Source: Rhodoferax sp.
GTDB lineage: Bacteria > Pseudomonadota > Gammaproteobacteria > Burkholderiales > Burkholderiaceae_C
Direction of reading: 5' to 3'
Assembly (NCBI RefSeq): GCF_023700745.1
Contig: NZ_JAMPYG010000009.1
Location: 62,001 to 126,000 of the forward strand
Length of the DNA: 64,000 nucleotides
In this document: positions 23,178 to 33,735 of the stretch, piece by piece
How the letters are laid out: every line of letters begins with the position of its first letter
Position numbering within the stretch: the stretch's first letter is position 1
Program-made: the position numbers and the translations under genes
The notes under the pieces: model-generated
The model's input: the letters and a program-made list of their open reading frames with translations, nothing else
What the model was told of the DNA's origin: nothing
Database searches by the model: none

Positions 23178-25004
23178 ATGAGCCTGCCTACCCCCACCCA
23201 AAACAAGCCTGCTGCCAGCGCAGCGGCTACCGACGTCGTCAAACCCAGCAATTTTTTGCGTCAGATCATCGAATCCGACCTGGCCAACGGCACCTATGCC
23301 AGCCGCAAATGGGGTGGCAGCCCCGGAGATGCCGCACACCATGCGGCCGGCCAGCCCGACCCCGCCAAAGTCCGCACCCGCTTTCCGCCCGAACCCAACG
23401 GCTACCTGCACATTGGCCACGCCAAAAGCATCTGCCTCAACTTTGGCCTGGCGCGTGACTACGGCGGCGTGTGCCACCTGCGCTTTGACGACACCAACCC
23501 CGAAAAAGAAGACACCGAGTACGTCAACAGCATCATCGACGCGGTGAAATGGCTCGGCTTTGAGTGGAACGGCGCCGCCAATGCCGCGCCTTACCAGGCC
23601 AGCGACTACTTCGACTTCATGTACCGCGCGGCGGAATACCTGATCGAGGCCGGCCACGCCTATGTGGACGAGCAAACCGCCGAAGAAATGCGCCTGAACC
23701 GCGGCGACTTCGGCAAGCCCGGCATCAACAGCCCTTTCCGCGCCCGCACCCCGGCCGAGAACCTGCGTCTCTTCCGTGAGATGCGCGACGGCCAGCATGA
23801 AGATGGCGCCATGGTGCTGCGCGCCAAAATTGACATGGCCAGCCCCAACATCAACCTGCGCGACCCGGCCATTTACCGCATCCGCCGCGCCACCCACCAC
23901 AACACCGGCGACAAATGGTGCATCTACCCGATGTACACCTACGCGCACCCGATTGAGGACGCGCTGGAGCAGATCACCCACAGCATCTGCACGCTCGAAT
24001 TTGAAGACCAGCGTCCGTTTTACGACTGGTTGATGGAACGGCTCATCGAGGGCGGCCTGCTCGCCAGCCCACCACCGCACCAGTACGAATTTGCCCGGCT
24101 GAACCTAACCTATGTCATCACCAGCAAACGCAAGCTCGCGCAACTGGTGTACGACCACAAAGTGAGCGGCTGGGACGACCCGCGCATGCCCACCATCGTC
24201 GGCCTGCGCCGGCGTGGCTACACCCCGGCCAGCCTGCAACTGTTTGCCGAGCGCATTGGCGTGACCAAGAGCGACAGCTGGATCGACTACAGCACGCTGG
24301 AAGGCTGCCTGCGCGAAGACCTCGAACTCAAGGCGCACCGCGGCATGGCCGTGCTGAACCCGGTCAAGCTGGTCATGAGCAACTGGGACGAAGTTATGGG
24401 CGCCGGCCACCTGGAGCCCTGCAGCCAGCCTGCCCTGCCCCATGCCGCCGAAGGAATGGAAGTGCCCACCCGCCGCTTTAGCATCGGCAAAGAGGTGTGG
24501 ATTGACCGCGAAGACTTCGAAGAAGTGCCACCCAAGGGCTACAAGCGTTTGTTCCCCGGCAACAAGGTGCGGCTGAAAGGTGGCTACGTGATCGAATGCA
24601 CCGGCTGCAACAAAGATGCGAGCGGACAGATTACCGAAGTGCTGGCCACCGTGGTGCCCGACACCAAGAGCGGCACGCCCGGCAGCGAAACCGTCAAGGT
24701 CAAGGCCGCCATCACCTGGGTCGGCGTGGCCAACGGCGTCAACGCCGAAGTGCGCCTGTACGACCGCCTATTCAGCGATGCCCATCCCGACGCAGGCGGC
24801 AAGGACTTCATCGAGAGCCTGAACCCGAACAGCCTGAAGGTGGTGACTGCAATCGTGGAGCCTTCGTTGGCGAACGCGTTGCCGGATCAGAAGTTTCAGT
24901 TTGAGCGGCACGGGTACTTTGTGGCGGATCGGGTGGATCACGTGCAAGGAACAAAGCCAGTGTTTAACTTGGCGGTGGGGTTGAAGGATAGTTGGGGGAA
25001 GTGA
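23178..25004 (+). CDS. glnS: Glutaminyl-tRNA synthetase
   Basis: A 608-residue class I aminoacyl-tRNA synthetase charging tRNA-Gln. The HIGH motif occurs in PEPNGYLHIGHAKSI near residue 78, and the KMSKR-equivalent is ITSKRKL. The C-terminal anticodon-binding beta-barrels begin around RRFSIGKEVWIDREDF. It is longer than the E. coli enzyme (554) because of an N-terminal extension of about 20 residues and a small insert (GSPGDAAHHAAG). The ATG at 23178 was chosen by the onset of family similarity. The next gene begins only 21 bp after the stop, at the boundary of an AT-rich island. Confidence 0.95.
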   Translation: MSLPTPTQNKPAASAAATDVVKPSNFLRQIIESDLANGTYASRKWGGSPGDAAHHAAGQPDPAKVRTRFPPEPNGYLHIGHAKSICLNFGLARDYGGVCHLRFDDTNPEKEDTEYVNSIIDAVKWLGFEWNGAANAAPYQASDYFDFMYRAAEYLIEAGHAYVDEQTAEEMRLNRGDFGKPGINSPFRARTPAENLRLFREMRDGQHEDGAMVLRAKIDMASPNINLRDPAIYRIRRATHHNTGDKWCIYPMYTYAHPIEDALEQITHSICTLEFEDQRPFYDWLMERLIEGGLLASPPPHQYEFARLNLTYVITSKRKLAQLVYDHKVSGWDDPRMPTIVGLRRRGYTPASLQLFAERIGVTKSDSWIDYSTLEGCLREDLELKAHRGMAVLNPVKLVMSNWDEVMGAGHLEPCSQPALPHAAEGMEVPTRRFSIGKEVWIDREDFEEVPPKGYKRLFPGNKVRLKGGYVIECTGCNKDASGQITEVLATVVPDTKSGTPGSETVKVKAAITWVGVANGVNAEVRLYDRLFSDAHPDAGGKDFIESLNPNSLKVVTAIVEPSLANALPDQKFQFERHGYFVADRVDHVQGTKPVFNLAVGLKDSWGK

Positions 25005-25025
25005 CCGCCCATTTCTATATTCACT

Positions 25026-25823
25026 ATGGCATTCTTACGATGGGCTGGAAGTAAAAAGCAAATTCTTGGAACGGTGTCCCAGGCTTGGTATGCATCTGGT
25101 GCAACTGGGCGATATATTGAATCGTTCTCAGGATCTGCAGCCCTGTTCTTCTACATTTCTCCACCGAAATCGATCCTCATAGACTGCAACCCGCATCTTC
25201 AAGAATGCATGTCAGTCTTAAAGAGAAGACCAATAGCCGTTTCCACGCTATTGCAACGATACTCCGGTGACGAAGCAGAGTATTACAAAGTTAGATCCAC
25301 AGACCCTTGCCTACTGTCACCCGAAGAACGATCTGCAAGATTCATTTACCTAAATCGATTCTGCTTCAATGGCTTATATAGAACCAACTCCAAAGGTTGG
25401 TTTAATGTCCCTTATGGCGGACACAAAAGTGGCGAATTGCCGAATGCAGACAAGTTGAAATATTATTCAGATATCCTAAGAAACACCACAATTGTTTGCG
25501 GAGACTTCTATACACAAACAAAAAAATACGTCGAATCAGGAGATTTCGTATATCTAGATCCGCCATACGCCAAAACAAATGCAAGCCTCGATTTTCAGTA
25601 TGGACCAAATGAATTTGGCATGAATGATTTAGATCGCCTCAATGAATTAATAAAAATTATTCATAGCAGAGGAGCGTACTTTGTTGTTTCATATGCAAAA
25701 TGCGAAGAAATAGAAATGCTATCTGAAGATTGGTATCAGTATCCTGTGGAGGTTAGACGCACAATCGCAGCGTCGCCACAAAAGCGTCAGGCAGCACCAG
25801 AGCTTCTAATCACAAATCTTTAG
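25026..25823 (+). CDS. D12-class N6-adenine DNA methyltransferase
   Basis: A 265-residue Dam-like methylase of the D12 class, transferring a methyl group from SAM to adenine N6 in a short DNA site. The start FLRWAGSKKQIL and the SAM loop YIESFSGSAALFF (in place of the usual EPFxGxG) are followed by catalytic motif IV DPPY at residues 178-181 (VYLDPPYAKT). RFIYLNRFCFNGLYR is the conserved LNRxxFNGL stretch. It is shorter by about 10 residues than E. coli Dam. It begins 21 bp after glnS, in AT-rich DNA unlike glnS. As first gene of the island operon it may mark host DNA as self; target site unknown. Confidence 0.9.
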   Translation: MAFLRWAGSKKQILGTVSQAWYASGATGRYIESFSGSAALFFYISPPKSILIDCNPHLQECMSVLKRRPIAVSTLLQRYSGDEAEYYKVRSTDPCLLSPEERSARFIYLNRFCFNGLYRTNSKGWFNVPYGGHKSGELPNADKLKYYSDILRNTTIVCGDFYTQTKKYVESGDFVYLDPPYAKTNASLDFQYGPNEFGMNDLDRLNELIKIIHSRGAYFVVSYAKCEEIEMLSEDWYQYPVEVRRTIAASPQKRQAAPELLITNL

Positions 25824-25833
25824 GCGACAAATC

Positions 25834-27078
25834 GTGAAGCTACTTGTAATCAGTGACTTGCATATCGGTGATCATGCTCGGTCCGCCGATTTATGTCCGC
25901 ACACTCTGACGCCAGAACAATTGATAGGACGAGATCAGAATTTCATTGGAGATTTTGAGACATTCATCAATAACACGAAAACACTTTCAAACGGTGTTGA
26001 TGCAATATTGATCACCGGCGACATAAGTAACCGAGCACACGTTGCCGAATTCACTTTAGCCGGCAAGCTATTTAGCAGAATTGCGAAACTCTTAAACACA
26101 ACCGAAGACAACGTCTTTTTCGTACCTGGAAATCACGATGTCCATTGGCCGGTGATGAAGTTAGAGCCCAAGGAATACTGGAAGCAACATCGATATGGAC
26201 CGATCTTGGACTCTGGTGTTTTTTTCCGGTCTCGGTCTGAGGCCGCATCAACTGGGAATATGTTTAAGGAACCATATTTCCAAGTTTGGACGAACGAGCA
26301 AATGTGTGTTGTTGGAATAAACACCGCCTCTCATGACAATCCCCACGAAGCCCACCACCATGGCTTAGTTCCACAACAGGCTATTGATGTGCTATGTACA
26401 CACTTGAGTGGCGTTGAAGGACTTCAAAACAAATTGAAGATTTGCCTAATGCACCATCATCCCATTATTTATTCTGATGTGATAGCGAATTTTGCAGATC
26501 TCAGCTCAGCTGCGAACGCTGAAAATTTAATGTCAATGCTAGCTAAATTTAGCTTTGATATGGTGATTCATGGTCATAAACATAACCCAAGATTGAACTA
26601 TCAAACAATCAACAACGCACACCCCTGTTTGATATTTGGGGCAGGAAGCTTCTCATCGCTTCTAGATCCAGTGAATTTCAATGGTATACCAAATTTATTT
26701 CATGTTATAGAAGTTAATGGACGGGATCAAAAAACAAACGGCATCCATGGAAAAGTAGTTAGCTGGGCATATGATGGGCAGACTTGGAGTGAGAAAATTC
26801 ATAATTCAAAACTCCCACATGTAGAGGTATTTGGTGCTGCAGTAACTCAACATGAGGTTATTGAAAGTTTTAAGAATATCATTGAATCCGAGTTTAAATC
26901 AATCAATGTCCTTAAATGGCCTCAGATAATTGCGATTGCACCAATTTTGGACAGAGTCAATGTAAATCTAGTTTGGAGTTGTCTAGAAACCGCTGCGAAA
27001 GACTTGGGGCACGAACCAGTGGGTGCCGTGTCTCTTGCTAAAGAAAGATGGGTTGTTTTGAGAAACGACAAATTATGA
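25834..27078 (+). CDS. Calcineurin-like metallophosphoesterase of the island
   Basis: A 414-residue protein whose first 270 residues form a calcineurin-like phosphoesterase. All metal-binding motifs are present: SDLHIGD (residues 7-13), GDISN (62-66), GNHDVH (99-104), the MHHHP histidines (206-210) and HGHKH (246-250). The family includes Mre11/SbcD nucleases and cyclic-nucleotide phosphodiesterases. The C-terminal 140 residues are unassigned. It starts with GTG at 25834, 10 bp after the methylase, and its stop overlaps the ATPase start (ATGA). A nuclease or signal-nucleotide hydrolase paired with the ATPase is the natural reading, but the substrate cannot be told from the sequence. Confidence 0.85.
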   Translation: MKLLVISDLHIGDHARSADLCPHTLTPEQLIGRDQNFIGDFETFINNTKTLSNGVDAILITGDISNRAHVAEFTLAGKLFSRIAKLLNTTEDNVFFVPGNHDVHWPVMKLEPKEYWKQHRYGPILDSGVFFRSRSEAASTGNMFKEPYFQVWTNEQMCVVGINTASHDNPHEAHHHGLVPQQAIDVLCTHLSGVEGLQNKLKICLMHHHPIIYSDVIANFADLSSAANAENLMSMLAKFSFDMVIHGHKHNPRLNYQTINNAHPCLIFGAGSFSSLLDPVNFNGIPNLFHVIEVNGRDQKTNGIHGKVVSWAYDGQTWSEKIHNSKLPHVEVFGAAVTQHEVIESFKNIIESEFKSINVLKWPQIIAIAPILDRVNVNLVWSCLETAAKDLGHEPVGAVSLAKERWVVLRNDKL

Positions 27079-28964
27079 GCAAGATTAATAATTCCTTGGT
27101 CAGAAACACAGTGGCACAAGAAAAGGTTAGTGCAAAAGGTATGCATCGACGCGCACAACCCGCTATATCGGCGGACTGGTCGGCCTTTGCCCTCGACAAT
27201 GGCAAGCAGATGCAGTTAGAGGAGATAGTCCGTTCGTTCGTTCCTTCTGAAGCTTTCAAGGATCTCTTTAACTCCAAGAATCAAATTTTGTTGGGTTCAC
27301 GTGGTTCTGGAAAGACGACCTGGGTGAGAATGCTAGCGCATGATCATGTGATGTATGCCTCGAGAATTGCCGAACCAAGAATGCAATATGCACGGGAAGC
27401 ACTTTCTCGAAATTTGATAGGTATATATGTTCCCGCTAGCGCGGCATTCTCAGGAGCGCTAAAGAACAAAGATTGGTCTTCAGAAAAGGAAGCTGAAGAG
27501 CAATTTGTTTGGAGACTAAATCTCCACTGCTGCGCAGCTCTAACTCACATTATTGAAAGTTGTGCCGAGCGTTTCCTGACGGAAGAGTACACAAAGCTTA
27601 AGGCAGTCGCAGATGTTTGTAAGAAACTCTCATTCGACTGGACGCAAGGAAAGCGGACTTGCAACACCATTGGTGAACTGCGTTCACTGCTTACTGAAAT
27701 TGAGTTATCGCATCAAGCGGCTTTGCGAGCCCATAGGGTACGCCACGGGGGAAGATCCGGAGAAATAGCACCCTTGGACTTTTTTGATAATGATGCACTA
27801 CTACCTCTACGTCACGCAATAGAAATAATAAAAAACATCATACATATTCCAGATTCAGCAGTTTGGATGGTTTGTGTTGACGAAGTGGAATACCTAACTG
27901 TACTTCATCACCGCATCCTAAATACCATTATGCGGGCATCAAGTGGAAATATCGTCTTGAAGTTGGCAACAATGCCATTTGCTCATTTGACTCTCGCAAC
28001 AAACGTCGAAGATCCTATTCGCGAGGGTCATGATTTTCAGTATGTGGTCGTCAACCAAGACCCTGTGGATTCGCGAGGAGTATCGGTTGACGGAGGTTTT
28101 ATGCGCTTCGCTCAGGACATATTTCGCCACAGATTTGCAAATCGCAATATTGATCTGGACGGTATATCGCTGAGCAGGCTATTGGGTAGCTCGCCGCTCT
28201 TCATAGACACACAAAAAAATGAAGCAGCCTTTATGGAGCAGCTGCGAAAGTATGGAAATACATCAACTATTGAGCGTGCTGAGCGATTGAAAGGTACCAA
28301 GAAGTTTGGCAGCGAAATATATAGAAAATTGGCTGGAGCCATCACATTGAGAACTGCACTTGATGAGAAGAAAGGTAATTCTAAATTAACCGTATACAGC
28401 GGAGAACAAATGGTGGTACGTTGCTGTGATGGTAATCCACGACGCCTAGTTCGAGTGATTAATTTGCTAGTTCAGCGTGCGGTTAGGTTGGATGGAAAGA
28501 TTCATCTACCTATAGATCCAGCAATTCAGAATGAAGTTTTGGAAGAAACAGCCAGAGATGTACTCGCAAGAACGCCCAGTGAACCTCCTTTTGGCGATCT
28601 TACGGCTAAGTACATAAATGCCATTGGAGCCTATATGGGATGGTTGTTTTCCAGTTCACAAAGAAGGTTGGGGAGTGACCAAGTTACTTCAGTAACGATA
28701 AAAGCAGCTGATGGCGAAGATGCCCAACACTTTATTAAGCAGGCTATTCAACTCTCGCTCATGACACCTAGTAATAACGTGCCAATGAAAACTCCTGATC
28801 AAGTCTGTGAAGGCGACTTTCACTTAGCGTTTTTATTTGCCCCACTATTTAAAATATTACCCAGAAGAAATGAAGTAGTGCGACTACCAAAGGTTCTAAT
28901 GCACGCAAGGGAAATTCAGACTAAGCGAATAATTGTCAACCAAGGTATTTTGGACTTGCAATGA
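27075..28964 (+). CDS. ORC/Cdc6-like P-loop ATPase of the island
   Basis: A 629-residue protein with Walker A GSRGSGKTT (residues 74-82), Walker B-like VCVDEVEYL with Asp-Glu at 269-270, and a sensor-2-like GNPRRL at 453-458. The last is the arginine motif seen in ORC/Cdc6, TniB and ExeA-type AAA+ proteins. About 190 residues separate Walker A from B, a long insertion for this class. No transmembrane helices or nuclease motifs are visible, and the last 170 residues are unassigned. The ATG at 27075 overlaps the phosphoesterase stop, and its own stop overlaps the next gene (both ATGA). It probably powers or gates the complex; a DNA- or invader-sensing role is inference. Confidence 0.75.
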   Translation: MSKINNSLVRNTVAQEKVSAKGMHRRAQPAISADWSAFALDNGKQMQLEEIVRSFVPSEAFKDLFNSKNQILLGSRGSGKTTWVRMLAHDHVMYASRIAEPRMQYAREALSRNLIGIYVPASAAFSGALKNKDWSSEKEAEEQFVWRLNLHCCAALTHIIESCAERFLTEEYTKLKAVADVCKKLSFDWTQGKRTCNTIGELRSLLTEIELSHQAALRAHRVRHGGRSGEIAPLDFFDNDALLPLRHAIEIIKNIIHIPDSAVWMVCVDEVEYLTVLHHRILNTIMRASSGNIVLKLATMPFAHLTLATNVEDPIREGHDFQYVVVNQDPVDSRGVSVDGGFMRFAQDIFRHRFANRNIDLDGISLSRLLGSSPLFIDTQKNEAAFMEQLRKYGNTSTIERAERLKGTKKFGSEIYRKLAGAITLRTALDEKKGNSKLTVYSGEQMVVRCCDGNPRRLVRVINLLVQRAVRLDGKIHLPIDPAIQNEVLEETARDVLARTPSEPPFGDLTAKYINAIGAYMGWLFSSSQRRLGSDQVTSVTIKAADGEDAQHFIKQAIQLSLMTPSNNVPMKTPDQVCEGDFHLAFLFAPLFKILPRRNEVVRLPKVLMHAREIQTKRIIVNQGILDLQ

Positions 28965-29896
28965 ATATAACACTCATTGAATCAGTCGCATCGGATTGTG
29001 TAGATTGGGAATCCTACGATCTAATTATTTTGGCCTCCGGCTTCGAAGAGCGAAGTATTCATATCGCGAAATCACTACCCAAGTCTGTTCACAGTTGTGT
29101 ACATGTTTTCGGATTTTCAAATGAATTAAAAACTCTTAGCCGTGAAAGCAATGACGTCGTATTTCGAAGAATCATCGGTGATAGCATCTTTGTTAGCAAT
29201 AACAAAGGTGAGTGTGAACGTGAATTTTGCAGAGTTTTTTCTACCGCTGCTCAAGGTAAGTCGAAATTGCGTGTTTTTGTCGACTACTCAACAATGAGTC
29301 GCGATTGGTATGGATACATACTAACTTGGGCGAAGTATCAAAACGTCTGCACAACTGTGGAACTAGATTTTGCATACTCACATGGAATTTACGCAAGCTC
29401 ATTTTGCCCTCTTCAAATAAGTGAAATAGTTTGTGTGCCTGGTTTTGAAGGCGGTGGCGCTGGATCACGCGTTACAACTGCTTTATATGGCTTAGGCTTT
29501 GATAGCGCAGCGACCTTAACCGTAAATGAACTAATTGAACCGGATCGAGTTGTTTGCTTCTTAGCCAGAGGCGGCATTTCCGATCCTCATGCGGACATCG
29601 TTTTGCGTGAAAACAGAGAGATGGTGGAAAGTTCGCGCTCCAGCGTCCTTGAATTGCCCATATCAGATATTCGACGATCTACGTCGCTACTGTTGGAGAA
29701 GTTATCAAGTATGAATGAGGCTTCGGAGGAGATTCTTCTGGTTCCCATGGGTCCCAAAACTCACGTTCTAGCTTGTCTGCTCGCGTGTCATATCTTGCCA
29801 AAAATCGCTTGCTTGCATGCGAAGGGAACAAGAAACCTACCTGTTCAGGTTTCCGCTGCGGGCCCCGTCTCAATTTCTCGTGTGGTGTATTGCTAG
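28961..29896 (+). CDS. Unrecognised protein, last gene of the island operon
   Basis: A 311-residue soluble protein I do not recognise. Features that can be seen are IILASGFEERSIHIAKSLP at the N-terminus, VFVDYSTMSRDWYGYIL in the middle, a glycine-rich GFEGGGAGSRVTTALYGLG and, near the C-terminus, VPMGPKTHVLACLLACHILP. The alternation of hydrophobic strands with glycine-rich turns suggests two Rossmann-like folds; the GPKTHVLACLLA segment has a faint look of CARF-domain nucleotide sites, but I would not assign it. Its start overlaps the ATPase stop by ATGA, so it is made with the ATPase and is probably a partner or sensor in the same complex. Confidence 0.75.
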   Translation: MNITLIESVASDCVDWESYDLIILASGFEERSIHIAKSLPKSVHSCVHVFGFSNELKTLSRESNDVVFRRIIGDSIFVSNNKGECEREFCRVFSTAAQGKSKLRVFVDYSTMSRDWYGYILTWAKYQNVCTTVELDFAYSHGIYASSFCPLQISEIVCVPGFEGGGAGSRVTTALYGLGFDSAATLTVNELIEPDRVVCFLARGGISDPHADIVLRENREMVESSRSSVLELPISDIRRSTSLLLEKLSSMNEASEEILLVPMGPKTHVLACLLACHILPKIACLHAKGTRNLPVQVSAAGPVSISRVVYC

Positions 29897-30028
29897 GGAT
29901 CGATCCACCCCAAATTGAGGTTGTAACTGTTAAGAGAAGCACCGTTCGGCGCAGTTAAGCGTTCCCAACGCCTGATAATCTGTGCGACCTGAAGTGGTAG
30001 CTCTTGTAATCTAAAAATAGGCTGGCCC
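29897..30028. other. Intergenic boundary of the island
   Basis: A 132-bp gap where base composition returns from AT-rich to host-like. It must hold the promoter for the restriction enzyme unless that is read through from the island. I see no tRNA fragment, no repeat matching the left boundary at 25005-25025 and no terminator hairpin. Confidence 0.4.
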
Positions 30029-32959
30029 ATGCCCCTCTCCTGGAACGAAATCAAATCCCGCGCGCTCACCTTCAGCCGCACCTGGGCTGACGCGGCGAGT
30101 GAAGACTCCGAGGCAAAACCCTTCTGGATCGATTTTTTCGAGATCTTTGGCATCACCGACAAGCGCGTGGCCACCTTTGAGCACGCCGTCAAAAAACTGC
30201 CCGGCCTGAACGGAGGGAAGGCCAAAACCGACGGTTTTGTTGATCTGTTCTGGCCTGGCATGCTGCTGGTGGAGCAAAAGTCGCGCGGCAAAAATCTGGA
30301 TGCGGCGCTCACGCAGGCGCTGTCCTACTTTCCCGGCATCGCCGAGCGCGATTTGCCGCAGTTGGTCATCGTCTGTGACTTTGCCCGTTTTTGCGTGCAC
30401 CGGCTCAGCACCAATGAGACTTTTGAATTTGCCCTGAAAGACCTGCACAAACACATCAAGCTGTTTGGCTTTGTGGCGGGTTACAAGGTGCAGACCATCC
30501 AGCCGCAAAACCCGGTCAACATCAAGGCCGCCGAGCGCATGGGACGCCTGCACGACGCCCTCAAGGCCAGCGGCTACAGTGACCACCCGCTCGAAGTGCT
30601 TTTGGTGCGCCTGCTGTTTTGCCTGTTTGCCGACGACACCGGCATTTTTCAACCCGCACAGTCGTTTCGCACCTTTGTTGAAGAGCGCACCGCCGCCGAT
30701 GGCTCCGACCTGGGTTCGCGCCTGGGGCAGTTGTTCCAGATTTTGAACACCGCCGAAGACAAGCGCAGCAAGGCGCTCGACGAGCAAGTGGCGGCTTTCC
30801 CCTATGTGAACGGCAAGCTGTTTGAAGAGCCGCTGCCCATGGCCGACTTCAACGCCGCCATGCGCGAGGCGCTGCTGGACGCCTGCGCGCTCGACTGGTC
30901 GGCCATCAGCCCGGCTATTTTTGGCAGCCTGTTCCAGAGCATCATGGACGACAAGGCCCGGCGCAACCTGGGCGCGCATTACACCAGCGAGGAGAACATC
31001 CTCAAACTCATCAAGCCGCTGTTTCTGGACGAGCTGTGGGCCGAGTTTGACAAGGTCAAAAACAACCGCCATCGGCTGTTTGAGTTTCACAAAAAACTGC
31101 GCACCCTCACCTTTTTTGACCCAGCCTGCGGTTGTGGCAATTTTCTGGTCATCAGCTACCGCGAGTTGCGAGAACTGGAGCTGGCCGTGCTGCGCGCCAG
31201 CAACACCTCGGGGCAGCAGACGCTGGACATTCATGGCCTGATTGGCATCAACGTCGATCAGTTTTACGGCATCGAGATTGAGGAGTTTCCGGCCCAGATT
31301 GCGCAGGTGGCGCTGTGGCTGATGGACCACCAGATGAACCTGCGGGTGAGCGAGGAGTTTGGCCTGTACTTTGCCCGCATTCCGCTGCGCACCTCGCCGC
31401 ACATCGTGCATGGCAATGCGCTGCGTCTGGACTGGAACGAGGTCATTCCGGCTGAGCGTTGCAGTTTTGTGCTGGGGAATCCACCGTTTGTCGGCGCCAA
31501 GTTCATGGATGAGGCCCAGCGCGAAGACACCCAACTGGTCTTTGCGGGTGTTGAAAATGCGGGCTTGCTGGATTTTGTGGCGGCCTGGTATGTGAAGGCG
31601 GCGCATTACCTGCGTGATGATGTGCCGGCGAGTACGGGCTGGCCGGCGGGCGCTCATGAACCTTCGGTTTTTAAAATCGCGCCCACCGGCCAGCCCGCAC
31701 TCACCTCTGGTCATGAACGTGCGAACCTCCGCTGCGCCTTCGTTTCCACCAACAGCATCACGCAAGGCGAACAGGTCGGCGTGTTGTGGGGCTGGCTGCT
31801 GGCGCAGGGTGTGCACATCCATTTTGCGCACCGCACGTTTAGCTGGAGCAACGAGGCACGCGGCAAGGCAGCGGTGCATTGCGTGATTGTTGGCTTTGGC
31901 TTGGAAGACCGGCCGGCCAAGGTGATTTACGAGTACGACGACATCAAGGGCGAACCGCATGCGGTGGCTGCGGCGAATATCAATCCGTATTTAGTTGACA
32001 CAACTGATGTCGTACTACCCCGACGTTCCTCACCCATTTGTGCCGTACCAACTATCAGCAAAGGAAATCAACCAACTGACGGCGGGCATCTGATCCTGAG
32101 TGCGACGGAACGTAGTGATTTTCTTTCGCAACATCCAGATGCCGCTCCCTTGGTAAAGCGGTTAATCGGAGCTCGTGAATTTCTGCACGGTGAGAATCGT
32201 TATTGTTTGTGGCTGGTAAACGTTCCACCTAATGTGATACGACGCTACCCTTTTGTGATGCAACGCATTGAGAAATGTCGGAAATTTCGCGCAGAGGAAG
32301 GTATTGCAAGCGACACAATTGCATTGGCTGCGACCCCGTCTCTTTTTCGTGAAACCAGAAATCCATCGCACTATGTCGTTGTACCAAGTGTTTCATCAGA
32401 ACGCAGAGCCTACATCCCATTTGGTTTCGAAACTGCTGACACAATCGCGACCAATTTGTGCCTAGTTATTGACGATGCCGATTTGTACCACTTCGGCATC
32501 CTCTCCAGCACCATGCACAACGCGTGGGTGCGCACCACCTGCGGGCGTCTGAAAAGCGACTACCGCTACTCCAAAGACATCGTCTACAACAACTTCCCCT
32601 GGCCCGACCTGCCGCCAGGTTCAGAGACAAATCAGGCTACAACCCCCGTCCACAAAGCGCAGACAGCCATCAAAACCGCAGCGCAAGCGGTGCTCGACGC
32701 CCGGGCTCAGTTCCAGACCGGCGCACAACCGGCGTCGCTGGCCGACCTGTACGACCCGCTCACCATGCCGCCGGTCTTGCTCAAAGCCCACCTAAGATTG
32801 GATACAGCCGTGGACGCGGCCTACGCGCTCAGCGGTGGCAAGAAGAGCTGGAAAAACGACGCCGAGCGTGTGGCGTTTTTGTTTGAGCTGTACCAAAAGT
32901 ACACCAGCCTGCTGCCTGCCACAACTCCCAAAAACAAACGCAAAGCAAAGACTGCATGA
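30029..32959 (+). CDS. Type IIL (MmeI-like) restriction-modification enzyme
   Basis: A 976-residue single-chain enzyme that both cuts and methylates DNA. The N-terminal nuclease signature fits MmeI spacing exactly: Asp72, nine residues, then Glu82-Gln-Lys84 (VDLFWPGMLLVEQK). The SAM-dependent N6-adenine methylase follows with motif I FFDPACGCGNFL near residue 365 and motif IV GNPPF near 483. Residues about 650-830, where the target-recognition domain lies in this family, are encoded by DNA visibly AT-richer than the rest of the gene. The stop overlaps the NERD gene start by ATGA. The recognition site is unknown. Confidence 0.88.
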   Translation: MPLSWNEIKSRALTFSRTWADAASEDSEAKPFWIDFFEIFGITDKRVATFEHAVKKLPGLNGGKAKTDGFVDLFWPGMLLVEQKSRGKNLDAALTQALSYFPGIAERDLPQLVIVCDFARFCVHRLSTNETFEFALKDLHKHIKLFGFVAGYKVQTIQPQNPVNIKAAERMGRLHDALKASGYSDHPLEVLLVRLLFCLFADDTGIFQPAQSFRTFVEERTAADGSDLGSRLGQLFQILNTAEDKRSKALDEQVAAFPYVNGKLFEEPLPMADFNAAMREALLDACALDWSAISPAIFGSLFQSIMDDKARRNLGAHYTSEENILKLIKPLFLDELWAEFDKVKNNRHRLFEFHKKLRTLTFFDPACGCGNFLVISYRELRELELAVLRASNTSGQQTLDIHGLIGINVDQFYGIEIEEFPAQIAQVALWLMDHQMNLRVSEEFGLYFARIPLRTSPHIVHGNALRLDWNEVIPAERCSFVLGNPPFVGAKFMDEAQREDTQLVFAGVENAGLLDFVAAWYVKAAHYLRDDVPASTGWPAGAHEPSVFKIAPTGQPALTSGHERANLRCAFVSTNSITQGEQVGVLWGWLLAQGVHIHFAHRTFSWSNEARGKAAVHCVIVGFGLEDRPAKVIYEYDDIKGEPHAVAAANINPYLVDTTDVVLPRRSSPICAVPTISKGNQPTDGGHLILSATERSDFLSQHPDAAPLVKRLIGAREFLHGENRYCLWLVNVPPNVIRRYPFVMQRIEKCRKFRAEEGIASDTIALAATPSLFRETRNPSHYVVVPSVSSERRAYIPFGFETADTIATNLCLVIDDADLYHFGILSSTMHNAWVRTTCGRLKSDYRYSKDIVYNNFPWPDLPPGSETNQATTPVHKAQTAIKTAAQAVLDARAQFQTGAQPASLADLYDPLTMPPVLLKAHLRLDTAVDAAYALSGGKKSWKNDAERVAFLFELYQKYTSLLPATTPKNKRKAKTA

Positions 32960-33735
32960 GCACCCTCAAGAAGCGTTCACCCCTGGACCGGGCACCGCCA
33001 CTGCGCGCACCGGGGCAATCGCTAACCGAGCAATTGCAGGACGAGTTTTACGATCATGTTGTTGCGCCAGGGACCCTTGCTTTGATAATGCTCCTCATGG
33101 CCGGGCTGGAGTGGTTTCGTTATTTCACGGCTGCCAAACCCAATCCCGTGATTTACACGGTAGTGGCTGTCCTGGCCGTGGCGTACGCAACTGTCAAGAT
33201 TTGGCGGGCTAAAAAACGCTTGGCGCAAATCAGGCTTGGGCGCGATGGTGAGCGTGCTGTGGCTGAGCATCTTGAATGGCTGCGGCGAAAGGATTTCGTG
33301 GTGTTTCATGACGTACCCAATGGCGACGCGAATGTGGATCATGTGGTGATAGGGCCGCAGGGTGTGTTCACCATAGAAACCAAAACTCATTCAAAACCGG
33401 TGCGGGGCGAATGCAAGGTGACGATGGTAGCAGGCGAAGTTTTCGCCAATGGGCATCGCATTGATCGCAACCCATTGGTACAAGCCAAAGCGCAGGCACG
33501 ATGGTTAGGCAACTTCCTGCGCGAAAACCAGTTTGAACCTTTTGTTTGGCCGGTGGTTGTTTTTCCAGGCTGGTTTGTTGAGTCGTTTGACAATCAAGCT
33601 GAGGGCATTTGGGTGCTGGAGACCAAGGCGCTTGCGAAGTTCCTCGAAAACGAACCCGTGCGGCATTCTCTGGACGACGTTAAGGCCATGGCCGCAGCTT
33701 TGCGCAGTTACGTGCGAGCACAGTCAGCCCAGTAA
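32956..33735 (+). CDS. NERD-domain membrane protein
   Basis: A 259-residue protein with two predicted membrane helices (about residues 38-75: APGTLALIMLLMAG and NPVIYTVVAVLAVAYATV). These are followed by a cytoplasmic NERD (nuclease-related) domain at about 78-200. Its conserved core is visible: LGRDGERAVAEHL, then VDHVVIGPQGVFTIETKTHS, where the Asp and Glu-x-Lys fit a restriction-endonuclease-like fold. The start overlaps the stop of the type IIL enzyme, so the two are co-translated. NERD proteins are often found beside defence genes; the role here is unproven. Confidence 0.85.
   Translation: MSTLKKRSPLDRAPPLRAPGQSLTEQLQDEFYDHVVAPGTLALIMLLMAGLEWFRYFTAAKPNPVIYTVVAVLAVAYATVKIWRAKKRLAQIRLGRDGERAVAEHLEWLRRKDFVVFHDVPNGDANVDHVVIGPQGVFTIETKTHSKPVRGECKVTMVAGEVFANGHRIDRNPLVQAKAQARWLGNFLRENQFEPFVWPVVVFPGWFVESFDNQAEGIWVLETKALAKFLENEPVRHSLDDVKAMAAALRSYVRAQSAQ

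What the first reader, a model, noticed from the sequence alone, without database searches (positions are those of the whole stretch)
25005..29950. Four-gene methylase-phosphoesterase-ATPase-unknown operon, possible undescribed defence system
Seen: an AT-rich block inserted straight after the glnS stop, with D12 adenine methylase, calcineurin-like phosphoesterase with all metal motifs, a P-loop ATPase with ORC/Cdc6-like GNPRR sensor, and an unrecognised protein; spacing 10 bp, then two ATGA overlaps. Known: methylase plus nuclease-like and ATPase genes in foreign-looking DNA beside restriction enzymes usually means phage defence. I do not recognise this set as a named system. Inference: methylation marks self, and the ATPase/unknown pair senses invading DNA and activates the phosphoesterase.
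Basis: partly seen in the sequence, partly recalled or inferred. Interest (0 to 1): 0.85.

Follow-up and report, generated by a model that had tools for sequence, protein, structure and literature searches.

The report
Dam-gated nucleotide-attacking defence operon (predicted)
Four linked genes, which recur as a unit in bacteria of several phyla, look like a defence module in which a DNA methylation mark tells self from invader and a nucleotide-attacking enzyme, rather than a DNA cutter, does the damage; no experiment shows this yet.

Summary
Window 25026-29896 holds a Dam-type methylase, a calcineurin-like phosphoesterase (MPE), an ORC-CDC6-like ATPase (PF24389) and a fourth gene that is not unknown: it is a CARF-domain protein (PADLOC CARF6; confident CARF-like model).

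The four genes are a real unit. The same order recurs in 25 of 37 usable loci of a capped scan of one genome per species, in several phyla, and on plasmids. ATPase plus CARF6 is the fixed core. In other clades the MPE slot holds PRTase-CE or HD-CE, and the methylase may be C5 or N4/N6 type.

Main result: all 10 scored operons without an adjacent methylase lie in genomes with a Dam elsewhere; only 1 of 32 with one does (5 of 32 at a looser threshold). This arose at three separated places on the ATPase tree, too few for a tree-corrected test. I infer that methylation, probably of GATC, marks self. The effector resembles nucleotide phosphodiesterases more than Mre11-type nucleases.

In this genus the cassette sits in a defence hotspot behind glnS, but flanks across 18 loci showed no defence enrichment. 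Parts, and probably the general class, have been predicted in print (recalled, not readable here).

The parts
25026..25823 (+). Dam-type D12 N6-adenine DNA methylase; predicted self-marking (probably GATC)
   Evidence: TIGR00571 194.6 bits, cut-off 114.85; closest solved chains DpnII methylase 2dpm (1.3e-37) and E. coli Dam 2g1p (2.4e-25); GATC-contact positions largely kept in 33 linked Dams
25834..27078 (+). calcineurin-like metallophosphoesterase; predicted nucleotide-targeting effector
   Evidence: PF00149 3.6e-15; motif residues invariant in 37 sequences; AlphaFold2 model pLDDT 79.9, fold near Lmo2642, Rv0805, GpdQ, SMPDL3A
27075..28964 (+). ORC-CDC6-like P-loop ATPase; predicted DNA-bound sensor/switch
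   Evidence: PF24389 4.9e-80; Walker A/B and R456 invariant in 36 sequences
28961..29896 (+). CARF6-family CARF-domain protein; predicted sensing partner of the ATPase
   Evidence: PADLOC CARF6 8.2e-38; 10 of 10 partner genes tested also match CARF6 models; model pLDDT 93.2; Foldseek CARF structures Cam1, Csm6, Csa3, Can2 at probability about 1, E-values 1e-3 to 1e-2
25003..29983 (+). extent of the exchangeable AT-rich cassette between glnS and the MmeI-like gene
   Evidence: same-genus genome G1307 is collinear up to 25002 and again from 29984, with about 940 nt of other genes between

Best explanation
A mobile defence operon that works like restriction-modification in how it tells self from non-self, but like abortive infection in what it does. 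Steps: (1) the Dam-type methylase, or in some hosts the cell's own Dam, methylates adenine, probably in GATC, across the host genome [supported by comparative genomics]; (2) the ORC-CDC6-like ATPase, paired with the CARF6 protein, surveys DNA and switches state on unmethylated invading DNA [inferred]; (3) the CARF6 protein, alone or by binding a nucleotide ligand, relays that state [CARF fold predicted; ligand and relay inferred]; (4) this unleashes the adjacent metallophosphoesterase, which hydrolyses free nucleotides or a nucleotide cofactor and stops phage growth, with or without killing the cell [enzyme class supported by fold and by slot exchange with PRTase-CE and HD-CE; substrate inferred].
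For: Unit: same four genes in the same order in 25 of 37 usable scan loci, plus L047, L133 and plasmids L127, L128, L130. Outside the window and L050, the ATPase-CARF gap is at most 12 nt in 45 of 45, MPE-ATPase at most 30 nt in 44 of 45, Dam-MPE at most 16 nt in 30 of 30. Distances of the four proteins correlate across 31 loci, r 0.50-0.83, 0 of 2000 permutations reaching any. Methylation: operons without an adjacent methylase have a Dam over the cut-off elsewhere in 10 of 10 genomes, those with one in 1 of 32 (Fisher 7.5e-9, not tree-corrected); three separated transitions on the ATPase tree, all in that direction. L036 and L048 put a C5 or an N4/N6 methylase before another effector. GATC-contact positions largely kept (contacts from a passage of PMC10073500). 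Effector: the slot before the ATPase holds PRTase-CE (5 loci) or HD-CE (2) in other clades; MPE profile and fold nearest Lmo2642 and Rv0805. Place: behind glnS, same-genus genomes carry other defence-like modules. Operon GC below flank in 44 of 45.
Against: Only three independent transitions underlie the Dam pattern; the tree-corrected sign test gives p 0.25, on a 'quick' tree. The 10 loci without a linked methylase are Vibrionales or Alteromonadales by title, or lie in the order of G680, where a resident Dam may be the rule. At E <= 0.001 instead of the cut-off, 5 of 32 linked genomes have another Dam-like match, L066's at 110.7 bits just under the 114.85 cut-off. Two unscored genomes with the operon at a contig edge (L054, L058) showed no Dam at all. 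PADLOC matches in flanks of 18 loci (117 genes) are no commoner than in control stretches (98 genes) of the same genomes. No synthase for a CARF ligand is recognised in the operon. K9 of E. coli Dam is Arg in 32 of 33 linked Dams and Y138 is not kept. Loci with PRTase-CE plus HAD or PfkB genes (L040, L041, L043) and the MPE locus L038 showed no methylase among the neighbours examined, so not all relatives use methylation. No infection data exist.
Confidence: 0.55

Rival explanations
1. The phosphoesterase is an off-switch, not the effector: it degrades the nucleotide that the CARF protein binds (ring-nuclease-like), and the ATPase/CARF pair itself acts on DNA.
For: The MPE is nearest to Rv0805- and Lmo2642-like phosphodiesterases, and CRISPR CARF proteins bind cyclic nucleotides (established).
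Against: The same slot holds PRTase-CE or HD-CE in other ATPase-CARF6 loci; a phosphoribosyltransferase fold is not a known cyclic-nucleotide hydrolase. No ligand synthase is recognised in the operon.
Confidence: 0.15
2. An unusual restriction system in which the phosphoesterase is a DNA nuclease guided by the ATPase to unmethylated sites.
For: Methylase linkage and the Dam pattern. Short motif-level matches of the MPE to a PADLOC effector labelled endonuclease (4.8e-9, 55 residues), to an SbcD-like PHROG (1.1e-5) and to SbcD/Mre11 chains (2.9e-4 and weaker).
Against: Lmo2642 (4.5e-18) and Rv0805 (4.8e-11) score far better than SbcD/Mre11; no SbcD or Mre11 chain is among the 50 fold matches listed; the slot is exchanged with non-nuclease folds.
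Confidence: 0.15
3. Mainly a selfish addiction cassette: the methylase protects the host from the trio, so loss of the cassette is punished, and phage defence is secondary or absent.
For: Found on plasmids (5 of 72,556 records), below flank GC in 44 of 45 loci, spread across phyla, no enrichment in the flank test.
Against: Behind glnS of this genus the alternatives are defence-like genes; CARF6 is in a defence library, and the nearest NCBIfam equivalog of the MPE is an antiphage phosphoesterase, though far below its cut-off.
Confidence: 0.1
4. The lack of a linked methylase in Vibrio/Alteromonas-type genomes is shared ancestry or chance, not substitution by the resident Dam.
For: Such loci come from one group of related hosts; sign test p 0.25.
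Against: They fall in three separated, supported places on the ATPase tree, next to linked relatives whose genomes have no other Dam over the cut-off, such as Cellvibrio and Halomonas.
Confidence: 0.25

Closest known systems
CARF6 family of CARF proteins (PADLOC CARF6 models; classification by Makarova et al. 2020, recalled)
   Same: Gene 4 and all 10 partner proteins tested match CARF6 models; PADLOC also holds a CARF-kinase-AAA model that L042 matches
   Different: CARF6 is a protein family, not a named system; no operon definition with the methylase and MPE was found in the libraries searched
Nucleotide-targeting effector systems: Calcineurin-CE, HD-CE, PRTase-CE (Nicastro et al. 2023, recalled; not held)
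   Same: PRTase-CE and HD-CE occupy the effector slot beside the same ATPase-CARF6 pair; their Pfam accessions directly follow ORC-CDC6-like (PF24389-24391)
   Different: I could not check whether the Dam-MPE-ATPase-CARF6 set is listed there; no model named Calcineurin-CE appeared in any library answer, so membership of the MPE was not tested
Type II restriction-modification (Dam/DpnII-type methylase)
   Same: Nearest solved relative of the methylase is the DpnII methylase; linkage behaves like a required protective mark
   Different: No restriction-endonuclease family matched; CARF and ORC-like ATPase present
BREX, Dnd/Ssp and related systems with ORC-CDC6-type ATPases
   Same: DNA modification plus ORC-CDC6-clade ATPases (passages of PMC12839542 and PMC10853773)
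   Different: No PglZ, PglX, BrxC, Dnd or Ssp model among the matches of the four genes
Type III CRISPR ancillary CARF proteins (Csm6, Can2, Cam1)
   Same: CARF fold of gene 4
   Different: The effector is a separate protein; the only Cas-type match of the four genes is a weak one (typeIV_Cas11, 7.9e-4, gene 4). CRISPR arrays were not searched for

Membership tests
CARF6 (PADLOC) | sequence match to CARF6 profiles and CARF Rossmann fold | tested here: met
   8.2e-38 for P0004; model pLDDT 93.2, CARF structures at probability about 1
CARF6 (PADLOC) | binds a cyclic or linear oligonucleotide | not testable with these tools
   no ligand data; no synthase recognised in the operon
ORC-CDC6-like (PF24389) | profile match over curated cut-off, Walker A/B, sensor Arg | tested here: met
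   270.3 bits, cut-off 27; residues invariant in 36 sequences
Nucleotide-targeting effector system (Nicastro et al. 2023, recalled) | effector slot shared with PRTase-CE / HD-CE beside the same regulators | tested here: met
   PRTase-CE in 5 and HD-CE in 2 other ATPase-CARF6 loci
Nucleotide-targeting effector system (Nicastro et al. 2023, recalled) | MPE belongs to Calcineurin-CE and hydrolyses nucleotides | tested here: inconclusive
   fold near nucleotide phosphodiesterases; no Calcineurin-CE model met; no assay
Dam (TIGR00571) | over the curated cut-off, catalytic DPPY motif | tested here: met
   194.6 bits, cut-off 114.85; DPPY in 33 of 33 linked Dams
Dam, GATC specificity | GATC-contact residues and methylation of GATC | tested here: inconclusive
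   equivalents of R124 33/33, P134 31/33, L122 as L/V/I 33/33, K9 as R 32/33, Y138 not kept; the methylated site itself cannot be tested here
Restriction-modification | DNA endonuclease acting at the methylase's site | tested here: inconclusive
   no restriction-endonuclease family matched; the MPE has short motif matches to nuclease-labelled models but is nearer to nucleotide phosphodiesterases
BREX / DISARM / Dnd / MADS | core signature proteins | tested here: not met
   no such match to the four proteins among the rows shown in PADLOC and NCBIfam

The most novel reading that the evidence does not exclude
A methylation-gated system that never cuts DNA: GATC methylation, supplied by its own Dam or borrowed from the host's housekeeping Dam, holds an ORC-like ATPase/CARF6 switch off; unmethylated invading DNA flips the switch, and the CARF protein unleashes an exchangeable nucleotide-destroying enzyme. 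It would join restriction-type self recognition to abortive nucleotide depletion.
Probability: 0.35. Interest if true: 0.8.

Novelty: new variant of a known kind. Interest (0 to 1): 0.62.

Why it matters
If right, it answers how a CARF-ATPase system outside CRISPR and CBASS knows what to attack: by the absence of a common methyl mark. The linked-versus-resident Dam pattern makes this directly testable in dam-plus and dam-minus laboratory E. coli, and would explain why the operon can travel with or without a methylase depending on its host. It also gives a bounded four-gene set, with swappable methylase and effector modules, for a group that I know only from prediction.

Tried and rejected
Close-relative searches with the window ATPase gave little: viral contigs none, 1 plasmid, 3 of 300 genomes of the order including the home genome. 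The CARF6 model PDLC01912 rang in only 1 of 299 genomes of the phylum, the home genome, so single CARF6 models are too narrow for a survey. The weaker PF24389 hits L044, L045, L046 and L049 show no CARF6 neighbour, so 10 of the 14 genomes over the Pfam cut-off have the ATPase-CARF6 pair, counting the home genome and L042, where the two are fused. PADLOC test of flanks against controls: no enrichment (the output counts members per family and shows 25 of 34 families in each set, so only a rough comparison). The E. coli genomes and phages collections gave no match to the Aliivibrio ATPase. Literature: in the listings of searches I saw no paper describing this four-gene set; two key papers are not held. 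Behind glnS I read 4 same-genus loci (L159, L160, L162, L165); L161, L163, L164, L166, L173 and L176 were only compared with the window by blastn.

The genome searches score only a few first-look candidates per genome, so misses are likely. Rows left out of the Dam count: L054 and L058 (contig edge), L079 (ATPase cut by the contig end), plasmids L127-L130 (host chromosome not searched). L061 was kept as unlinked although only 495 nt precede its MPE. L064, L074 and L078 were counted as linked although two (L064, L078) have a divergent D12 gene and two (L064, L074) have it on the other strand. The residue table used 9 of 10 resident Dams, because one was not recovered by the script. One of five plasmid hits (H4) was not opened.
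Full report
Observation. The block described is there with the stated spacing. It is AT-rich (GC 0.43 against 0.60). Pfam gives D12 methylase, Metallophos and ORC-CDC6-like for genes 1-3 and nothing for gene 4. PADLOC gives CARF6 for gene 4. NCBIfam places gene 1 in the Dam subfamily over its cut-off, and names an antiphage phosphoesterase as the best match of gene 2, far below its cut-off (91 against 420 bits). Gene 2 also has short motif-level matches to PADLOC models (PDC-S60 4.2e-11; an effector labelled endonuclease 4.8e-9).

The fourth protein. AlphaFold2 on an alignment of 37 sequences gave pLDDT 93.2 and pTM 0.92. Foldseek against the PDB lists CARF structures (Cam1, Csm6, Csa3, Can2) at probability about 1, although their E-values are only 1e-3 to 1e-2 and the single match under 1e-3 is a methyltransferase with poor TM-score. 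A profile search of PDB sequences found no CARF chain. With the PADLOC matches I take the CARF identity as well supported.

Is it a unit? A profile survey of 398 genomes of the phylum gave 14 over the PF24389 cut-off. Ten of these have a CARF6 gene adjacent or fused, counting the home genome. A search with the window ATPase added L047, with all four genes in order, and L048. A scan of one genome per species with the ATPases of window and L047 gave 38 loci; in one (L079) no ATPase was called. Of 37, 25 have methylase-MPE-ATPase-CARF6 in that order (one of them, L050, with a transposase inside the MPE gene), 8 lack the adjacent Dam label, and 4 are cut by contig ends near the operon. Among the 8, three have another D12 or a reversed Dam gene next door (L064, L074, L078). 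Titles of loci with all four genes include Proteobacteria, a Bacteroidetes, a Planctomycetota and a Gemmatimonadaceae bacterium and several Actinobacteria. Of five plasmid hits, four were opened: Cupriavidus, Sinorhizobium (conjugative) and Methylobacterium carry all four genes, Pseudoalteromonas three. Gaps are tight. The distance matrices of the four proteins agree over 31 loci, best for MPE-ATPase (r 0.83) and least for the methylase (r 0.50-0.58). The ATPase tree mixes phyla, as expected of horizontal spread.

Modularity. Outside this clade the gene before the ATPase is PRTase-CE (L035, L040, L041, L043, L048), HD-CE (L036, L039) or another Metallophos (L038). Methylases of other chemistry sit before them in L036 (C5) and L048 (N6/N4), and a C5 methylase lies further upstream in L039. 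L040, L041 and L043 carry HAD-type genes, and L041 and L043 PfkB-type genes as well, with no methylase among the neighbours examined. L042 fuses a kinase-like domain, the ATPase and CARF.

Natural experiment on the methylase. I searched genomes holding these ATPase operons for Dam (TIGR00571; 43 genomes, 6). Forty-two operons of the MPE clade could be scored. All 10 without an adjacent methylase (L055, L060, L061, L065, L086, L087, L123-L126) have a Dam elsewhere, with 293-319 bits. Of 32 with one, only L052's genome has another over the cut-off; at E <= 0.001 five do (L052, L066, L074, L075, L077), L066's at 110.7 bits against a cut-off of 114.85. Fisher's test on 10 of 10 against 1 of 32 gives 7.5e-9, which ignores relatedness. 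On the ATPase tree (quick method) the state changes three times, at supported places, each in the predicted direction; three pairs cannot reach significance (p 0.25). L123-L126 came from a search of 375 genomes of the order of G680, done after the idea arose; all four matches other than the starting genome fitted. In a search of 224 genomes of Cellvibrio's order the one new match has a linked Dam and no other. Two unscored contig-edge genomes (L054, L058) showed no Dam; their assemblies may be incomplete. The simplest reading is that the mark is needed and may be borrowed. Because a Dam or D12 gene is at hand in all 42 scored cases, an attack on methylated DNA is unlikely, so unmethylated DNA is the likely trigger.

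Which site? The closest solved relatives are the DpnII methylase and E. coli Dam, both GATC enzymes (established). Contacts in E. coli Dam are K9, L122, R124, P134 and Y119 (passage of PMC10073500). In 33 linked Dams the equivalents are R (32 of 33), L/V/I (33), R (33), P (31) and F/Y (33); Y138 is not kept. GATC is likely but not shown.

Effector. Motif residues are invariant in 37 sequences. By profile the nearest solved chains are Lmo2642 (4.5e-18) and Rv0805 (4.8e-11), with SbcD/Mre11 at 2.9e-4 and weaker. By fold, apart from a top-ranked integrative model, they are Lmo2642, Rv0805, SMPDL3-type enzymes and GpdQ (model pLDDT 79.9). This fits a nucleotide phosphodiesterase better than a DNA nuclease. 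The substrate is not known.

Place in the genome. In the nearest same-genus genome (G1307) glnS is followed by about 940 nt and then the MmeI-like gene, so the four-gene cassette is absent and the restriction gene is not part of it. The 940 nt hold a small gene pair; one member matches PADLOC PDC-S09, the other nothing, and the pair looks to me like an MNT-HEPN toxin-antitoxin (recalled motifs). Behind glnS, G1308 has AriA/AriB-like genes and G1310 has, third in line, a IIG enzyme; G1314 gave only weak matches. So this looks like a defence hotspot, from four loci. In a wider test over 18 loci, flanks were not richer in PADLOC matches than controls.

Verdict on novelty. No PADLOC or NCBIfam model joins the four genes, and nine paper searches listed no description. 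But the families involved are curated, and I recall that Nicastro et al. 2023 predicted systems with these effectors; the paper is not held (its reference was seen). I rate it a new variant of a known, predicted kind. The Dam substitution pattern is, as far as I could check, the new element.

Noticed in passing
window 25002-29984 and same-genus loci L159/L178, L160/L179, L162/L180, L165/L181: The stretch behind glnS in this genus varies: a PDC-S09-type gene pair, AriA/AriB-like genes, a IIG restriction enzyme or unknown AT-rich genes lie there in different genomes.
   Followed up: partly
window 30029-33735: MmeI-like IIG restriction-modification gene followed, with an ATGA overlap, by a NERD-domain protein; a gene with a similar N-terminus follows the AriA/AriB-like pair in L180.
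   Followed up: no
L040:8508-13475, L041:8348-14493, L043:7167-14340: PRTase-CE + ATPase + CARF6 operons that carry HAD-type hydrolase and, in L041 and L043, PfkB kinase genes, with no methylase seen: perhaps a different self or signal logic in the same family.
   Followed up: no
L042:8494-12213: One 1239-aa protein joins a kinase-like domain, the ORC-CDC6-like ATPase and a CARF6 domain, matching PADLOC CARF_STK_AAA.
   Followed up: partly
L129:2889-4733: On a Pseudoalteromonas plasmid a 614-aa protein with no Pfam match sits where the methylase usually is.
   Followed up: no
L050:4467-7884: In Curvibacter the phosphoesterase gene is interrupted by a Mutator-family transposase, while the neighbouring genes are open frames of the usual length.
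   Followed up: no
L058 and L061: Nearly identical operons in MAGs labelled Nitrosomonadales and Alteromonadaceae; one contig may be mis-binned.
   Followed up: no
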